DNA of 39,378 nt from Planctomycetota bacterium (GTDB lineage Bacteria; Planctomycetota; UBA8742; JACQVU01; JANLHZ01): positions 1 through 39,378 of the forward strand of contig JANLHZ010000111.1 in assembly GCA_024653775.1 (NCBI GenBank), in the 5' to 3' direction. The translations under genes and the position numbers were made by a program. The notes beneath the pieces are model-generated. The model searched no databases. It saw only the letters and a list, made by a program, of their open reading frames with translations, and was not told where the DNA came from. Position 1 is the stretch's first letter. Each line of letters opens with the position of its first letter. Of the stretch, positions 14,895 to 34,430 are shown piece by piece.

Positions 14895-16667
14895 ATGAAA
14901 CACGCACTTGTTCTAGTTATGCTCGTAATTTGCTTCACGCAGGTCGCCAAAGCCCAGGAACGACTGCCGCAGGTAAAGATAAGTCTGTTCCATTTCAACG
15001 TGCAATACGTCTGCGGCGACACTGAGTGCGAGGACAACATAATCAAGGCGTCTCTCGGCACTCTACTCGATGACCTGCTCGCGCACCCGAAGTGGAAAAT
15101 GAGCATCGAAATTCAGGGTTACGGCATCGAAGTAATGCGCGATCGACATCCGGAAGTTCTCGAAAAGCTTCGTAAAGCAGTGGACGGAGGGCAGGCGGAA
15201 CTGATAGTCACCCACTACTCCGACCAATGGTTCATCGGGTATCCGGGCGCGGACATGAAACGAAGCGTCGAGCTTAGCCGGAAAGCGCTCGAGTCCGTCG
15301 GACTGAAACACTCGGGCGTTTTCAGCGGGCAGGAAATGCAGTGGGCGCCGGGGCTTCCGGAAGTACTCGGAAGCGAATACCACACGTACATGGCGTCAAG
15401 CGGAATAAGCAGCTACGGCGGATTCGATAACGATTACTATCTCGCCGACAACGGAACCGACGAGAAGGCGTTCATCCTGACCCACCGCGGCCTCGGGAAC
15501 CTCCCGGTGGCGAACGCGAGTTGGGGCTTCTACGACGACGGAGAAAACTGGAACACGCTGATCAGCATCAACCGTTTCCGGCTGTTTCCGCCCCGAAGAA
15601 CGATAAACGTTCGCGACTGGGAGACGCTTGAAGCCGGAGGGCACGAGTTCTGGTTCCTGAGCGATCTAGTGAAAAAGATTCGCGAGTACCATAGTAGCGA
15701 AGGCACCGCGATTCCGGCTATTCCGGACTCCCACGGCGTAACGTGGCAGATGGGCGACGCCGGGCCGCATCTGTGGATGGGACGAAGGCTCGTCGCGAAG
15801 GAGCGCGACGGCGAGGTCCGCGCAAGGCCGTACCGTAGCCGCGGGCTGCACCGGCTGGCGGAGACGCTCGCTCCGAGGGACGGAAGACTCGATGACGCGC
15901 TGAAACACATTCTGCTGGCGGAGGTAAGCGATTCTTCCGGCTGGCGCCCGGAGCCGGGAGAGGTGCAGTACACCTTCGACGAATCGGACAAGGCCGACGG
16001 AATCCTGCAGGAGGTTTTCAACTCATGGGCAACTCCGGAGCGGGCGGGTAAGGTTTTCGAGGTCAGGACTGCAAGCGGAGCCGTCCGCGCGATGAGCGGC
16101 CCGCCGCAGGTGAGCGGCCAGAGTTTGCAAGAGGTTCCCGCCGCGACGCTGCATCCGCGGATCGAGGCGGAAAACTGCAAGGTCCGGATCGGCTACGAAC
16201 TGATCGCGAACGGCACCGAAAAGGCTACCGTTACCGTCACGCCCGACTCGGACGCGGCGTTCAGGTACAAACTGACTTTCGAAACTCCGGGACGGAGCGT
16301 TTTCGCGAGCCGCGAACTGATAGATCTTGCGCCGCGTGAAATTCCAGCGCCGGCGCGCGAGGAACTTTCTCTCGCGATTCCAGACGGTATTTTCGGGATG
16401 AGCGATCGCGCGTGGCTCGTCAAGGACTGCCAGGAACGCCACCTCAGCGTCCAGTGGCGACCAGCGGAAGGCGCCGCGTCTATGGAAGAATTCGTCGGCC
16501 TCGAAACCCCCGCGTTTACCTTCTCGTTCTATCTCACGATCTCGGCGAATACAGCGAAATTCCTCGCGGAAGAGTTGAACGTCAATCCCAGGTACTACGT
16601 CGCGGTTCCTTCCGCTGGAGTTGCGAGCGTGCAACGGGCGACGGGTCGGTATCTGTTCGCGCAGTAG
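14895..16667 (+). CDS. Secreted glycosidase-like protein (GH38/GH57-type or deacetylase-superfamily barrel)
   Basis: This 590-residue protein has a signal peptide (LVLVMLVICFTQVAKA). Its first half reads like the catalytic barrel of GH38/GH57 enzymes: LFHFNVQYV near the start, WKMSIEIQGYGIEVM, GGQAELIVTHYSDQ, then FSGQEMQWAPGLPEVL, with Glu and Asp residues at likely active-site strands. The second half is beta-rich. Such enzymes cleave alpha-linked glycans or process glycan termini, probably outside the inner membrane here. The family assignment rests on motif resemblance only. ATG 14895 is preceded by GGAG and starts the signal peptide. The stop TAG (16665-16667) runs directly into an inverted-repeat element. 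Confidence 0.65.
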   Translation: MKHALVLVMLVICFTQVAKAQERLPQVKISLFHFNVQYVCGDTECEDNIIKASLGTLLDDLLAHPKWKMSIEIQGYGIEVMRDRHPEVLEKLRKAVDGGQAELIVTHYSDQWFIGYPGADMKRSVELSRKALESVGLKHSGVFSGQEMQWAPGLPEVLGSEYHTYMASSGISSYGGFDNDYYLADNGTDEKAFILTHRGLGNLPVANASWGFYDDGENWNTLISINRFRLFPPRRTINVRDWETLEAGGHEFWFLSDLVKKIREYHSSEGTAIPAIPDSHGVTWQMGDAGPHLWMGRRLVAKERDGEVRARPYRSRGLHRLAETLAPRDGRLDDALKHILLAEVSDSSGWRPEPGEVQYTFDESDKADGILQEVFNSWATPERAGKVFEVRTASGAVRAMSGPPQVSGQSLQEVPAATLHPRIEAENCKVRIGYELIANGTEKATVTVTPDSDAAFRYKLTFETPGRSVFASRELIDLAPREIPAPAREELSLAIPDGIFGMSDRAWLVKDCQERHLSVQWRPAEGAASMEEFVGLETPAFTFSFYLTISANTAKFLAEELNVNPRYYVAVPSAGVASVQRATGRYLFAQ

Positions 16668-16764
16668 TACATTATATTCGTGCCGTCTACGAATTTTACG
16701 TACGATTATCGTTGCCGATCATAATATTACGAATAATTCGTAGACGGCACGAATATAATGTACT
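16666..16764. repeat. Inverted-repeat element, copy 2 of the GTGCCGTCTACG family
   Basis: Perfect 30-bp arms (16666-16695 and 16735-16764, AGTACATTATATTCGTGCCG...) enclose 39 bases. The left arm starts in the stop codon of the glycosidase-like gene and the right arm ends three bases before the stop of the convergent lipoprotein gene. It matches copy 1 (9534-9633) through both the arms and the AT-rich flank ACATTA. It may serve as a terminator for both convergent genes, although there is no T-run after the stem. Confidence 0.85.
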
Positions 16765-16766
16765 GT

Positions 16767-17642
16767 TCAACGGCCGCGGCGCGAGAGTGGGAACCACCAC
16801 GAGCGTTCGCTTCTCGACATGAACTTGTCGATTATTTCGAGGCAGATCGAAACCTGATCTTCGATCCGAAACGCGAACTCGTGGAGATTCGACAGCGCTT
16901 CCCCGTCGAGTGTCGCCTTCCAGAGCGAATTCGCGTTCGCCTCGTCGTATTCCACCAGCCGAAGCTCGAAGAAGTCGATGTACGCGAAGTCGAGCGAGCC
17001 TGCGCGCTCGACGTATTCGACTCTGACGTTGACTTCAAGGCCGAGTTTCGAGTCGACGGGGGTCCCCGGCTTCACGACTTCCATCCCGAATCTTCGACTG
17101 AACCATCCGCTGATGGATTCCGGCACCCTAAGTCCGATTATGGATTCGAGCGACCGCAGCATCTTCGCTTCCGATCCTTCCCGGCGCTGACTTCCAGCGG
17201 GGACCGGGACCCAGTCCACCGTCTGAACCACCAGCGGCACCGTGGGGACGACTCCCGCCAGGGCTACAGGTTTCGTTGTTATCGAGTCGAGTCTTTCTGC
17301 GCCGAGGACGGTTATCGGTTTCTCTGCTCTTGCCTCGATTGCGTTCGCTCCGAGCTTGATTCCGTCGGCGCGGTCCTGAAGTCGAATCTGCGGACGCTCC
17401 GGACCCGCATATCCGAGCACGGATGTTATAGTGGCGCACGAGCTGCAGAACAGCAGAAAGAGCAGTAGAGTGGAAGCGCGTGCCGCGAACATTTTCAGTA
17501 ACTGTTCTCGGGGTAGTTTGCGGTGTATAGCGGAAATCTGTTCGTAGTGCGCTCGTGAGAGCGCCTTTTCGCAACGTGGTGAATCGAAGAAACGCCTTAC
17601 GGCGCCGCTACGAACGCGAATTACTCCGTGAACAGTTACCAT
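16767..17642 (-). CDS. Lipoprotein with an in-frame N-terminal extension encoded by a palindromic element
   Basis: The native protein is a 241-residue lipoprotein starting at ATG 17492. It has the signal MFAARASTLLLFLLFC, lipobox LFCSSC, then a beta-rich body of unknown family. A 142-bp element inserted exactly at its start codon and duplicated eight bases (TGAAAATG, gene strand). The original ribosome site (GGAG, complement of about 17650-17655) now precedes the outer ATG at 17642, giving 50 extra codons (VTVHGVIRVRSGAVRRFF...) in frame ahead of the signal peptide. If the inner ATG is used, only a weak site is available. I annotate the outer start because of the ribosome site. The added basic segment could affect export. 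Third gene of a lipoprotein run. Confidence 0.7.
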   Translation of the reverse strand: MVTVHGVIRVRSGAVRRFFDSPRCEKALSRAHYEQISAIHRKLPREQLLKMFAARASTLLLFLLFCSSCATITSVLGYAGPERPQIRLQDRADGIKLGANAIEARAEKPITVLGAERLDSITTKPVALAGVVPTVPLVVQTVDWVPVPAGSQRREGSEAKMLRSLESIIGLRVPESISGWFSRRFGMEVVKPGTPVDSKLGLEVNVRVEYVERAGSLDFAYIDFFELRLVEYDEANANSLWKATLDGEALSNLHEFAFRIEDQVSICLEIIDKFMSRSERSWWFPLSRRGR

Positions 17643-17647
17643 TTTCA
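17490..17647. mobile_element. Palindromic mobile element copy A with 8-bp target duplication
   Basis: The element occupies 17498-17639 (142 bp). Ends GTAACTGTTCTCGGGGTAG and the reverse complement of GTAACTGTTCACGGAGTAA form imperfect terminal inverted repeats. The flanking octamers CATTTTCA at 17490-17497 and 17640-17647 are identical, the mark of insertion. The octamer spans the stop of one lipoprotein gene and the start of the next, so both genes keep their ends. Interior: hairpin GCGCTC-GTGA-GAGCGC (17549-17564) and a GCC-GTAA-GGC hairpin on the other strand. No coding capacity for a transposase, so it must be moved in trans. Confidence 0.93.
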
Positions 17648-18334
17648 ATTCTCCGTCTGCATCAGCGTGAACGTCGGAGAGAACAGATGGTATCTCCGAT
17701 ACGTGACGGACGAGCGCTCGCCCGTGGGTTCGAAGGTAATTCCTCCCTGCGTCCGCGCGAGTCTGTCAACGAAATAGCTTTCTTCGAGGATGTACGTCAT
17801 AATCGAACCTCCGCGATAGCCGTGCTCGGTTTTTTCCGCAACCGTGACGTTTGCCTCGATTTCGAAAATGAAGTCCACGGGCTTTTCCGACGTGACTCTG
17901 AGCGACGCCCACGCCTGCTTTCGAAACTTCTCGTCCAGCCGCGTGTCGAGGAGTATCCCTGCGGCGAGGGAGTCGTTTCCGGAGAGTTCGAACGTGCCAG
18001 GAAACCTCACCGAGAGGGTCTGGTTCCTCACCCACGCGAATCCTTTCTCCGCGCACGATTCAAGCGTTTCGCGATCCTCCGGAGAGACGTTGTCCGCGAG
18101 CACGACCTCCGGACTCTCTACGAACTCGATGATCGACCATCCTTCGCCGGAGGCATTCGAGAGAACCTCCGTGAGATTCGTTCTCCACTGCTGCGCAAAC
18201 ACTTGTTCCCAGCCGCGTTGTTCATCGAGGAGCGCGTTTTCGACCTCCTCCTTCGTCTTGCAGCCTGAAGCCGCGAAGACTGTCACCGCGAGAAGAATCG
18301 CCAATTGCAGGGTATCGATGTTCGAAGGTTTCAA
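17645..18334 (-). CDS. Lipoprotein, unknown function
   Basis: A 229-residue protein with a lipoprotein signal (LAILLAVTVFAASGC, Cys25) followed by a charged helical segment (KTKEEVENALLDEQRGWEQVF) and a body of alternating strands. No family recognised. It is the second of three lipoprotein genes on the minus strand (18390-19142, this, 16767-17642). Its stop TGA (17647-17645) lies in the duplicated octamer of the inserted element. Before insertion the stop was followed after two bases by the ATG of the next gene, so the two were probably translated together. Confidence 0.7.
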   Translation of the reverse strand: MKPSNIDTLQLAILLAVTVFAASGCKTKEEVENALLDEQRGWEQVFAQQWRTNLTEVLSNASGEGWSIIEFVESPEVVLADNVSPEDRETLESCAEKGFAWVRNQTLSVRFPGTFELSGNDSLAAGILLDTRLDEKFRKQAWASLRVTSEKPVDFIFEIEANVTVAEKTEHGYRGGSIMTYILEESYFVDRLARTQGGITFEPTGERSSVTYRRYHLFSPTFTLMQTEN

Positions 18335-18389
18335 CTGTGGTTCCAGTGTACGGAAGTCGTTTCAAACGTCCAGATATTCGTTTTCAGCT

Positions 18390-19142
18390 TTAGTCCACTA
18401 TCCAGGATTCATCGACGGGGATGGTCTTGATTGCGATTACCCCGCTTGCGGGAAGCTCGAAGGTTCCCGCGTTCTTGTTTTCAGTGACGATCTCCGCCTT
18501 GATGTCGAGGAGTAGCGAGATCGCGTTCGCATCGATGGATTTGTTGTCTTCGGTTTCGAAGTTGAACTCGAGTCCGTCGACCTCGATGCTTTCGAGAATG
18601 ACACGCCAGCTTTTCATCCTGGCGACGTTCGGGTGATCCGTTCCGTGCGAGCGGGAATAGTCCTCGACCGCGCGCCTGATGCTTTCCTTCGTGAGCGAGT
18701 ACGTCCAGGTCTTGCCGAAGGACGCGGTATACGAACTGACGCCGCTTGCCTCGAAACCCGCGCCCGCGTCGAACGGCGTGCCCTGATACGTCATCGAAAC
18801 CGCGTTTGCGATGAATTCGATTCCGGACTTGTCGCTGCCGGAAACGTTCTTCAGTTGTACCGTCTGGAATTTGTCTGGAGTCGGGATTTCGACGCGGATG
18901 TCGTTTTGCAAATCCGCCCGCGATAACTCGGCTTCGAACCCCGCGATCTCGCTTCCGGAGACGAAATCTCCGGGGTAGAACTGCTTGCGGGGAAGATCGA
19001 GCACCTCGTAGCCCGCGGGCACGAACTCTTTCAGTCTGTCGCGGAACGTGGCGGACACCTGCCCGTCGGACGAGCACGCGGAAGTCGCATTCAGCGCAAA
19101 AGCAAGAACAAGTGAAACCCGAGCTAAATCCCTGAAATTCAT
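18390..19142 (-). CDS. Lipoprotein, unknown function; paralogue of the 21890-22780 lipoprotein
   Basis: A 250-residue protein starting at ATG 19142, with GGGGG just upstream. The lipoprotein signal MNFRDLARVSLVLAFALNATSAC ends at Cys23. The upstream ATG at 19214 in the same frame has no signal peptide and is rejected. The segment PAGYEVLDLPRKQFYPGDFV (about 42-61) resembles EYGYQAVIPARGDFRPGAIV in the lipoprotein at 21890-22780, so the two probably share an ancestor and function. Later parts are mixed strand and helix with no recognisable catalytic motif. It heads the three-gene lipoprotein run. Confidence 0.7.
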   Translation of the reverse strand: MNFRDLARVSLVLAFALNATSACSSDGQVSATFRDRLKEFVPAGYEVLDLPRKQFYPGDFVSGSEIAGFEAELSRADLQNDIRVEIPTPDKFQTVQLKNVSGSDKSGIEFIANAVSMTYQGTPFDAGAGFEASGVSSYTASFGKTWTYSLTKESIRRAVEDYSRSHGTDHPNVARMKSWRVILESIEVDGLEFNFETEDNKSIDANAISLLLDIKAEIVTENKNAGTFELPASGVIAIKTIPVDESWIVD

Positions 19143-19346
19143 CGAAGACCCCCCTGCGGAATGAAGTTGCTGCCCGATTTGATTCGAAGTTCTCGAAAAG
19201 TAGTTTCGCAGCATTTTAAGCCTTTTCGAGCTTCAGACAACTACCAAGAAAAATTGCTTTCGATCTCACGCGTAGCGGCATACAGGTTAACGCGGATTTT
19301 CACGGATTCGTAGAATGCGAGGCTCGCGGCGTCACTTCTAACCCGC

Positions 19347-19374
19347 GTTCGCAGTGCGCCCGTGAGGGCATAAG
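19347..19374. repeat. Possible relic of the palindromic element
   Basis: GTTCGCAGTGC followed by GCCC (19358-19361), loop GTGA, GGGC (19366-19369) and ATAAG resembles the interior module GTTCGTAGTGTGCTCGTGAGAGCATATT of the mobile element family, with a different but still pairing stem. No terminal repeats or target duplication remain. It lies in the 244-base gap between two minus-strand genes (19143-19386), in which I see nothing else. Confidence 0.45.
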
Positions 19375-19386
19375 TCGCCTCGAAAC

Positions 19387-20121
19387 TCACTCCTCCGGAG
19401 CGAACGGCATCGCGGCGCTGGTAGCGATCTGTCTCGCGAGTTTTCGCATCGCGTCTGCGAGCGCGGCTTCGCGGGAAGAAGCACTGACGTTGACGTCGCT
19501 TTCGGATACGAATTCGCGATCCCTGAAAATCGCTTCGCCGCGGGGACCGAAGTAGTTCGCGATCGCAACGACGCGCACGCGGACGTACGCTGGGACGTCG
19601 CGGCTTTCCTCGACGAGCGCGCTTTCCTCGACGTCGGTTATCGCGACCTTGAGCGTCGCGTCCGCCGCCGCCTCCCCCACCGACGCGGATAGCTGCGGCA
19701 TCCTGCGTAGTTCCGCGCCTATGGATTCGTAGAGGATTTCCTCGACGCCTCTTCGGACCGGGATTTCGAGATTTTCCACGGGGAAGACGTACACGGACTC
19801 GACATCCGCAAGGCCGCCGCCACCGAGGTTGTAGCCGCAGGAACCCGCAAAGAGCGACGTAATGATCGAGACAAGGACACCCGCGAAAATAGTCGCGCGG
19901 CCTTTCAGAGGATCGAGACCGCTCCCTCCGCCGACACCCAGGTTCCGGCGTTCTGAGGCTGTCGATTTATTTATCCTTCTCCCCACGGGAGAAGGTGGCC
20001 GAAGGTCGGATGAGGGAATTATTATTTCAAGCGACGTCCGATGTTCTCCCTCCCCCGGAGGGAGAGGGATGAACTCGTAATTCGTAATTCGCAATTCGTA
20101 ATTACTTGGCGTATTCGACAA
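19387..20121 (-). CDS. LptE-like outer-membrane lipoprotein with a repeat-derived leader
   Basis: The core, from about residue 78, has a lipoprotein-like signal (ATIFAGVLVSIITSLFAGSCGYNLGGGG, probable Cys95). It continues with ESVYVFPVENLEIPVRRGVEEILYESIGAELRR, matching the LptE-like family that helps LptD insert lipopolysaccharide into the outer membrane. The first ~70 residues are translated from dispersed repeats (heptamers ATTCGTA and two palindromes) and are not protein-like. No ATG exists between them and the signal peptide, so the native start was probably replaced or is a CTG/other codon; I give the longest open frame from ATG 20121, which overlaps the rny stop by 20 bases. Start is uncertain; the core call is reasonable. 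Confidence 0.65.
   Translation of the reverse strand: MSNTPSNYELRITNYEFIPLPPGEGEHRTSLEIIIPSSDLRPPSPVGRRINKSTASERRNLGVGGGSGLDPLKGRATIFAGVLVSIITSLFAGSCGYNLGGGGLADVESVYVFPVENLEIPVRRGVEEILYESIGAELRRMPQLSASVGEAAADATLKVAITDVEESALVEESRDVPAYVRVRVVAIANYFGPRGEAIFRDREFVSESDVNVSASSREAALADAMRKLARQIATSAAMPFAPEE
19975..19995. repeat. Dispersed palindrome (GGGAGAAGG type)
   Basis: CCTTCTCCC (19975-19983), loop CAC, GGGAGAAGG (19987-19995) is a perfect 9-bp stem, followed by the tail TGGCCGAAGGTCGGATGAGGG. A shortened relative stands at 25792-25810 (TCCTTCTCCCGACGGGAGA). Such palindromes are dispersed repeats; this one lies inside the translated leader of the LptE-like gene. Confidence 0.7.
20046..20064. repeat. 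Dispersed palindrome (CTCCCTCC/GGAGGGAG)
   Basis: CTCCCTCC (20046-20053), loop CCC, GGAGGGAG (20057-20064) is a perfect 8-bp stem lying between the other palindrome and the heptamer run in the leader of the LptE-like gene. Purine/pyrimidine strand bias is strong. No function can be assigned. Confidence 0.6.
20073..20100. repeat. Heptamer tandem repeat (ATTCGTA type), four units
   Basis: ACTCGTA ATTCGTA ATTCGCA ATTCGTA, period exactly seven, ends one base before the stop codon of rny. The same unit recurs three times at 22937-22957, just before the cysteine desulfurase gene. Both sites touch a gene boundary. Confidence 0.85.
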
Positions 20122-29929: not shown

Positions 29930-30135
29930 CAAAATTCGTAACTGTTCACTGGGTAGTTCGCGTTCGTAGTGGCGCCGTAAGGCGTTTCTTTGAAATGTGT
30001 TTGTAGTGGCGCCGTAAGGCGTTTTTATGCGAAGAATATATGCTCTTACGAGCACACTACGAACTGAAATATGCTCTCACGAGCATACTGCGAACTATAG
30101 ACTGCAAACTACCCCGTGAACAGTTACAAAAATTC
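29930..30135. mobile_element. Palindromic mobile element copy C, longest copy
   Basis: Element 29938-30127 (190 bp), ends GTAACTGTTCACTGGGTAG and the complement of GTAACTGTTCACGGGGTAG. Flanking octamers CAAAATTC (29930-29937) and AAAAATTC (30128-30135) match at 7 of 8. It has two GGCGCC-GTAA-GGCGTT modules on the left and two TGCTC-GTRA-GAGCA modules on the opposite strand on the right, so it is extended by module duplication. It fills most of the 327-base gap 29818-30144. Neither TIR-frame is open across it. Confidence 0.9.
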
Positions 30136-34282: not shown

Positions 34283-34430
34283 ATGAGCCGTAACTGTTCA
34301 CGGGGTAGATCGCAATCTATATGTTCGTAGTGTGCTCGTGAGAGCATATTTTCGCGGTGCACTGGATCAAAGAAACGCCTCACGGCGCAACTACGAACGC
34401 GAACGACCCCGTGAACAGTTACAATGAGCC
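34282..34430. mobile_element. Palindromic mobile element copy D with perfect 8-bp target duplication
   Basis: Element 34290-34422 (133 bp) with ends GTAACTGTTCACGGGGTAG and its near-complement, flanked on both sides by the octamer AATGAGCC (34282-34289 and 34423-34430). Interior modules: TGCTC-GTGA-GAGCA on one strand, GCGCC-GTGA-GGCGT on the other. The TIR frame is open in both orientations; on the minus strand it encodes VTVHGVVRVRSCAVRRFF, like the extension created by copy A. It lies 33 bases before the gpmI start. Confidence 0.95.

What the first reader, a model, noticed from the sequence alone, without database searches (positions are those of the whole stretch)
16767..17660. Palindromic element inserted on a stop/start junction gives a lipoprotein a 50-residue element-encoded N terminus
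Before insertion the junction read TGAAAATG: the stop of the upstream lipoprotein and, two bases later, the start of the next. The element duplicated exactly these eight bases, so both genes keep an end. The old ribosome site now precedes the outer ATG, and translation runs 50 codons through the element, in frame, into the native signal peptide. Either the extension is tolerated, it silences export, or the inner ATG is used.
Basis: seen in the sequence. Interest (0 to 1): 0.8.

Follow-up and report, generated by a model that had tools for sequence, protein, structure and literature searches.

The report
Mobile repeat extends a lipoprotein's start
A short, no-longer-autonomous transposable repeat landed exactly on the stop/start junction between two bacterial genes and left a continuous reading frame, so the second gene probably now begins with 50 extra residues ahead of its export signal; this is a clean new example of a known phenomenon, and a second copy in the same genome did almost the same thing.

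Summary
A 142-bp element (17498-17639, minus-strand reading) with inverted ends GTAACTGTTC is flanked by exact copies of TGAAAATG, the stop/start junction of two minus-strand genes. Insertion added 150 bp = 50 codons, in frame. The element is a MITE: 55 copies were measured, 37 with an exact 8-bp duplication (random control 0.02%). Its ends and duplication size match the IS66 family (ISBst12 group, ISDge4), but no IS66 transposase is in the assembly. The open frame belongs to the family (24 of 27 copies of 142 bp are open) and shows no sign of coding selection. The native Shine-Dalgarno (GGAG, -6.6 kcal/mol) now serves the outer ATG. The inner ATG has a weak site (-3.0, no better than random) inside the element's stem. 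The likeliest product is a preprolipoprotein with a 50-residue basic n-region, removed with the signal peptide, so the mature lipoprotein is unchanged; this is inferred. A second copy (G000:C160:17200-17341) lies inside codons 7-8 of another lipoprotein signal sequence, same frame, strong ribosome site. No orthologue without the element was found, so start use is not proven. MITE-encoded N termini are known (RPE, RU-2): a new member of a known kind.

The parts
17498..17639 (-). 142-bp MITE copy, inverted ends GTAACTGTTC
   Evidence: TIRs at both ends, 55 aligned copies; 17 substitutions from the family consensus
17490..17497 (-). target-site duplication copy 2 (TGAAAATG on the minus strand); holds the inner ATG 17490-17492
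   Evidence: identical to the other copy
17640..17647 (-). target-site duplication copy 1 (TGAAAATG); holds stop TGA 17645-17647 of the upstream gene and outer ATG 17640-17642
17651..17654 (-). Shine-Dalgarno-like GGAG, 8 nt before the outer ATG
   Evidence: duplex energy -6.6 kcal/mol, reached by 7% of random 19-mers
16767..17642 (-). lipoprotein gene read from the outer ATG (291 aa incl. 50-residue extension)
   Evidence: open frame; coding model picks this start
16767..17492 (-). native lipoprotein gene read from the inner ATG (241 aa)
   Evidence: empty-site reconstruction keeps GGAGAATTGAAAATG start; no Pfam match
17436..17492 (-). native signal peptide MFAARASTLLLFLLFCSSC, non-canonical lipobox ending at Cys
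   Evidence: sequence and hydropathy maximum; assignment inferred
17645..18334 (-). upstream lipoprotein-like gene (MKPSNIDTLQLAILLAVTVFAASGC...) whose stop lies in the duplicated target
   Evidence: coding score; no Pfam match
29938..30127 (+). second copy of the family, 190 bp variant
34290..34422 (-). third copy of the family, 133 bp, exact TSD AATGAGCC

Best explanation
A non-autonomous MITE, most likely mobilised by an IS66-type (ISBst12-group) transposase, inserted into TGAAAATG and duplicated it (insertion and duplication shown; the transposase type inferred). Of the six ways to read the family consensus only one frame is open, and 142+8 = 150 bp adds exactly 50 codons; here the element landed in that orientation and phase (shown). 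The retained ribosome site, coupled to the upstream stop, loads ribosomes at the outer ATG, giving a precursor with a 50-residue, basic (11 K/R, 4 D/E), non-hydrophobic n-region ahead of the native hydrophobic core (inferred). Sec export and signal peptidase II then remove the whole extension, leaving the mature lipoprotein unchanged, which is why the insertion is tolerated (inferred).
For: Exact TSD and family TSD statistics. Open frame in 24 of 27 142-bp copies. Outer SD -6.6 against inner -3.0 kcal/mol; 7% and 46% of random windows do as well. SD region of the inner ATG fully paired in the element stem (unpaired 0.00), of the outer ATG partly free (0.34; empty site 0.38). Second case L003: ATG with SD -9.4, 7 codons, element, then IFDFRSLIVAIAMCFATASFGC; whole gene open, 685 aa. 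Otherwise 31 of 43 clean insertions are intergenic and the rest lie at gene ends, none in the middle of a well-supported gene.
Against: No proteomic, transcript or ribosome-profiling data. No orthologue without the element in 60 relatives. A stem starts at +4 of the outer ATG (unpaired -4..+15 only 0.32 against 0.53 in the empty site), which should lower initiation. The peptide shows no coding constraint: 24 of 27 open against 21.8 expected, 10 of 47 residues changed in the window copy. The lipobox (CSSC) is non-canonical.
Confidence: 0.58

Rival explanations
1. The inner ATG (17490-17492) is the working start; the element is only a structured 5' leader and no extension is made.
For: The TSD keeps the A-rich TGAAAATG context; the window copy has GAGAA 12 nt upstream where the consensus has GTGAA; unpaired -4..+15 is higher at the inner ATG (0.56 vs 0.32).
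Against: Inner SD no better than random (-3.0; 46% of random windows) and completely paired in the stem; coupling to the upstream stop is lost. This escape is poor in the second case L003, where later starts give a truncated or uncharged signal peptide.
Confidence: 0.2
2. The insertion silences or cripples the gene: the hairpin lowers initiation, or the 50-residue n-region blocks export, and the gene is drifting.
For: Strong fold of the region (-69.3 kcal/mol, z -2.5); no coding constraint visible on the extension.
Against: The downstream frame is intact with good coding score over 240 codons although the element is among the more diverged copies (17 substitutions). Long basic n-regions are used by autotransporters (PMC2805444).
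Confidence: 0.18
3. The 50 residues are an old, conserved part of the protein and not an insertion.
For: None found.
Against: The same 142 bp is repeated tens of times between unrelated genes, with TSDs.
Confidence: 0.01

Closest known systems
IS66 family, ISBst12 group (ISDge4 of Deinococcus geothermalis, PMC12898284)
   Same: Ends GTAACTG(C/T)TCA and an 8-bp duplication (here).
   Different: No transposase inside, and no PF03050 or zf-IS66 match anywhere in the assembly.
Rickettsia palindromic elements (RPE)
   Same: About 150 bp, palindromic, one open frame, in-frame residence in genes (review PMC10969869).
   Different: Here copies are mostly intergenic (31 of 43); coding cases are confined to gene ends; no sequence relation tested.
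Enterobacterial RU-2 (Delihas 2007, PMC2759123)
   Different: Here the native hydrophobic core stays native and only the n-region is element-encoded; exact TSD and empty site can be read.
Coxiella QMITEs (PMC5896051)
   Same: Intergenic MITEs that sometimes alter protein ends, including in-frame C-terminal additions.
   Different: Different element; here N-terminal in-frame cases.
Extended signal peptides of autotransporters (PMC2805444)
   Same: Long basic N-terminal extension before an ordinary signal peptide.
   Different: There often conserved and native; here a mobile-element by-product with no conservation.

Membership tests
MITE | Short element with terminal inverted repeats and no transposase ORF | tested here: met
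   118-190 bp copies, inverted GTAACTGTTCACGGGG ends
MITE | Target-site duplication of fixed size | tested here: met
   37 of 55 exact 8 bp, control 0.02%
MITE | Many copies in one genome | tested here: met
IS66/ISBst12-derived element | Termini like the family (GTAAC...) and 8-bp duplication | tested here: met
   Compared with published ISDge4 ends and DR; a phylum-level IS66 copy has GTAAGCG ends and an 8-bp TSD
IS66/ISBst12-derived element | Autonomous partner with IS66 transposase and the same ends | tested here: not met
   No PF03050 or PF13005 in the assembly; 331 contigs, many ending inside copies, so a multicopy IS could be missing; the ends were not found paired around 21 IS66 loci of the phylum. 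So it works like an IS66-type MITE; descent from IS66 is not established.
Rickettsia palindromic element (RPE) | Frequent in-frame location within protein-coding genes | tested here: not met
   31 of 43 intergenic, one internal N-terminal case, one start-junction case, C-terminal cases
Rickettsia palindromic element (RPE) | Sequence homology to an RPE family | not tested
   No RPE sequences fetched
Bacterial lipoprotein | Signal peptide with lipobox and +1 Cys | tested here: inconclusive
   MFAARASTLLLFLLFCSSC has charge, core and Cys but a non-canonical -3 residue

The most novel reading that the evidence does not exclude
This MITE family, with one open frame and a frame-neutral 150-bp footprint, uses signal-peptide n-regions as a permissive coding niche: the encoded peptide is thrown away with the signal peptide, so in-frame insertions accumulate there and nowhere else inside genes. 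Two lipoprotein cases in one genome (lipoprotein-like genes about 8% of those scanned) fit this, with a third, ambiguous, lipoprotein at a contig end (L145).
Probability: 0.15. Interest if true: 0.55.

Novelty: new member of a known kind. Interest (0 to 1): 0.36.

Why it matters
It gives two reconstructable insertions in which a transposon remnant becomes the n-region of a lipoprotein precursor. They allow a direct test of how long and how foreign an n-region can be before export fails, and they suggest where coding insertions of MITEs are tolerated. It also warns that signal-peptide scans limited to the first residues miss such proteins: my own 45-residue scan missed both.

Tried and rejected
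Orthologues of the target and of the L003 protein were sought in 60 and 20 genomes: only the own genome. The element was sought in 60 relatives and its end in 246 phylum genomes: own genome only; the one genome-contig scan gave two contig-end hits in a Desulfobacterales MAG, with no transposase among the ORFs listed on the one contig examined. L007, L029, L154 and L144 have open frames through the element, but later ATGs better explain their starts (L007 SD -11.6, L154 SD -6.6; L144 and L029 on weaker evidence). L145 reads from element into a lipoprotein, but its contig begins inside the element and a GTG start is possible. Coding selection on the open frame: rejected. Element-borne sigma-70 promoter: none found by a simple scan. 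Ribosome bypass between the duplicated ATGs: considered, no evidence. One Pfam call failed on a coordinate error and was not repeated; the Anabaena MITE paper was not held.

Full report
OBSERVATION. On the minus strand the window reads GACGGAGAATTGAAAATG, then 142 bp from GTAACTGTTCACGGAG to CCCCGAGAACAGTTAC, then TGAAAATGTTCGCG. The flanking octamers are identical and the ends are inverted repeats. TGA (17645-17647) ends the upstream ORF; the two ATGs (17640-17642 and 17490-17492) are 150 nt apart, in frame, without a stop. Joining the flanks gives GGAGAATTGAAAATGTTCGCG: one stop, two bases, one start, with GGAG 8 nt before it. Of the 50 residues before the inner Met, 47 lie wholly in the element.

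WHAT THE ELEMENT IS. Three copies lie in the window. Of 55 copies with both ends, 37 have an exact 8-bp duplication and 43 have at most one mismatch over 7-9 bp; random position pairs match at 0.02%. Lengths run from 118 to 190 bp, 142 being commonest. It is therefore a MITE with 8-bp duplications. The ends GTAACTGTTCA and the 8-bp duplication resemble ISDge4 (GTAACTGCTCAGCA, 8-bp DR), an IS66-family element of the ISBst12 group (PMC12898284); a phylum-level IS66 copy has GTAAGCG ends and an 8-bp TSD. No IS66 transposase is in the assembly; many contigs end inside copies, so a repeated IS may simply be unassembled. The family was not found in 60 relatives, nor its terminal pattern in 246 phylum genomes.

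THE OPEN FRAME. The consensus is open in one of six frames, and 142+8 = 150, so an insertion in that phase adds 50 codons. 24 of 27 copies of 142 bp are open, against 21.8 expected when the same substitutions are placed at random, and substitutions fall 64/84/95 on codon positions 1/2/3. There is no convincing sign of selection for coding; the target simply inherited an open frame and landed in the right phase.

WHERE COPIES SIT. With a dicodon gene model trained on these loci, 31 of 43 clean insertions are intergenic; the others overlap gene ends. L014 and L015 lie 31-35 bp before a stop. One apparent internal case (L005) rests on a very weak gene call. The window copy lies on a stop/start junction. 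L003 (G000:C160:17200-17341) is inside a gene, 21 bp after the first base of its ATG.

SECOND CASE. L003 reads MGGFSIF-[VTVHGVVRVRSGAVRRFFDPPRRENMLSRAHYEQIPAIDRDLPREQLR]-IFDFRSLIVAIAMCFATASFGCNNK..., from an ATG with a strong ribosome site (AGGGGG, -9.4 kcal/mol) about 20 bp after a gene that looks like glycyl-tRNA synthetase alpha (name from the sequence, not searched); the full ORF is 685 aa. Without the element it reads MGGFSIFDFRSLIVAIAMCFATASFGC, an ordinary lipoprotein signal. Later starts would give a truncated or uncharged signal peptide. This is independent support that the element is translated in place, though again without expression data.

WHICH START. In the target the outer ATG has SD -6.6 kcal/mol (7% of random windows as good), the inner -3.0 (46%). 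The inner SD region is fully paired in the element stem (unpaired 0.00). The outer start keeps 0.34 unpaired in its SD region (0.38 in the empty site) but loses downstream accessibility (0.32 against 0.53). The outer start also keeps its two-base distance from the upstream stop. I infer that the outer ATG is the main start, perhaps less efficient than before. The extension is basic and not hydrophobic; the only hydrophobic maximum is the native core. Signal peptidase II would remove extension and signal together, so the mature protein is unchanged. This last step rests on general knowledge of lipoprotein processing; long basic n-regions exist in autotransporters (PMC2805444).

NOVELTY. [quoted passage not shown] The case is a new member of that kind. 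New in detail are the readable empty site on a stop/start junction and two lipoprotein n-regions hit in one genome. Two cases against about 8% lipoprotein-like genes (11 of 143, one of them doubtful) is suggestive only.

LIMITS. The genome is a fragmented assembly of an unnamed lineage; only one other genome of its order was among the relatives searched, and it showed no match to the gene. All statements on start use and export are predictions.

Noticed in passing
window 16666-16764: A second, unrelated palindromic repeat of about 95-99 bp lies between two convergent stop codons, directly behind the lipoprotein gene; the search returned about 40 places in the genome (limit reached) with TACATTATATTCGTGCC-like ends, and many copies end in TA on both sides. 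A sub-threshold Rfam hit to a miRNA family (46 bits, cut-off 139) probably reflects the near-perfect hairpin.
   Followed up: partly
L003 1480-3145 (G000:C160:17179 onward): In-frame copy of the element inside the n-region of another lipoprotein gene.
   Followed up: yes
L145 1-1716 (G000:C281): Contig begins inside the element and reads in frame into a lipoprotein (LLRLLFLISAFAFSGC); native start unclear, GTG possible.
   Followed up: partly
L014 1501-1642 and L015 1501-1642: Copies 31-35 bp before the stop of a gene, both co-oriented and in the same phase by my hand reading of the coordinates, which would replace the C terminus by an NCSRGSSRS-like tail ending at an element stop.
   Followed up: partly
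G000 contig ends, e.g. C188, C281, C280, C267, C144, C325: Many contigs begin or end inside this element, so it breaks the assembly and the true copy number is higher.
   Followed up: no
window 17645-20121: A minus-strand row of lipoprotein-like genes, beginning with an LptE match (Pfam PF04390, 9.7e-07), followed by genes without Pfam matches.
   Followed up: no
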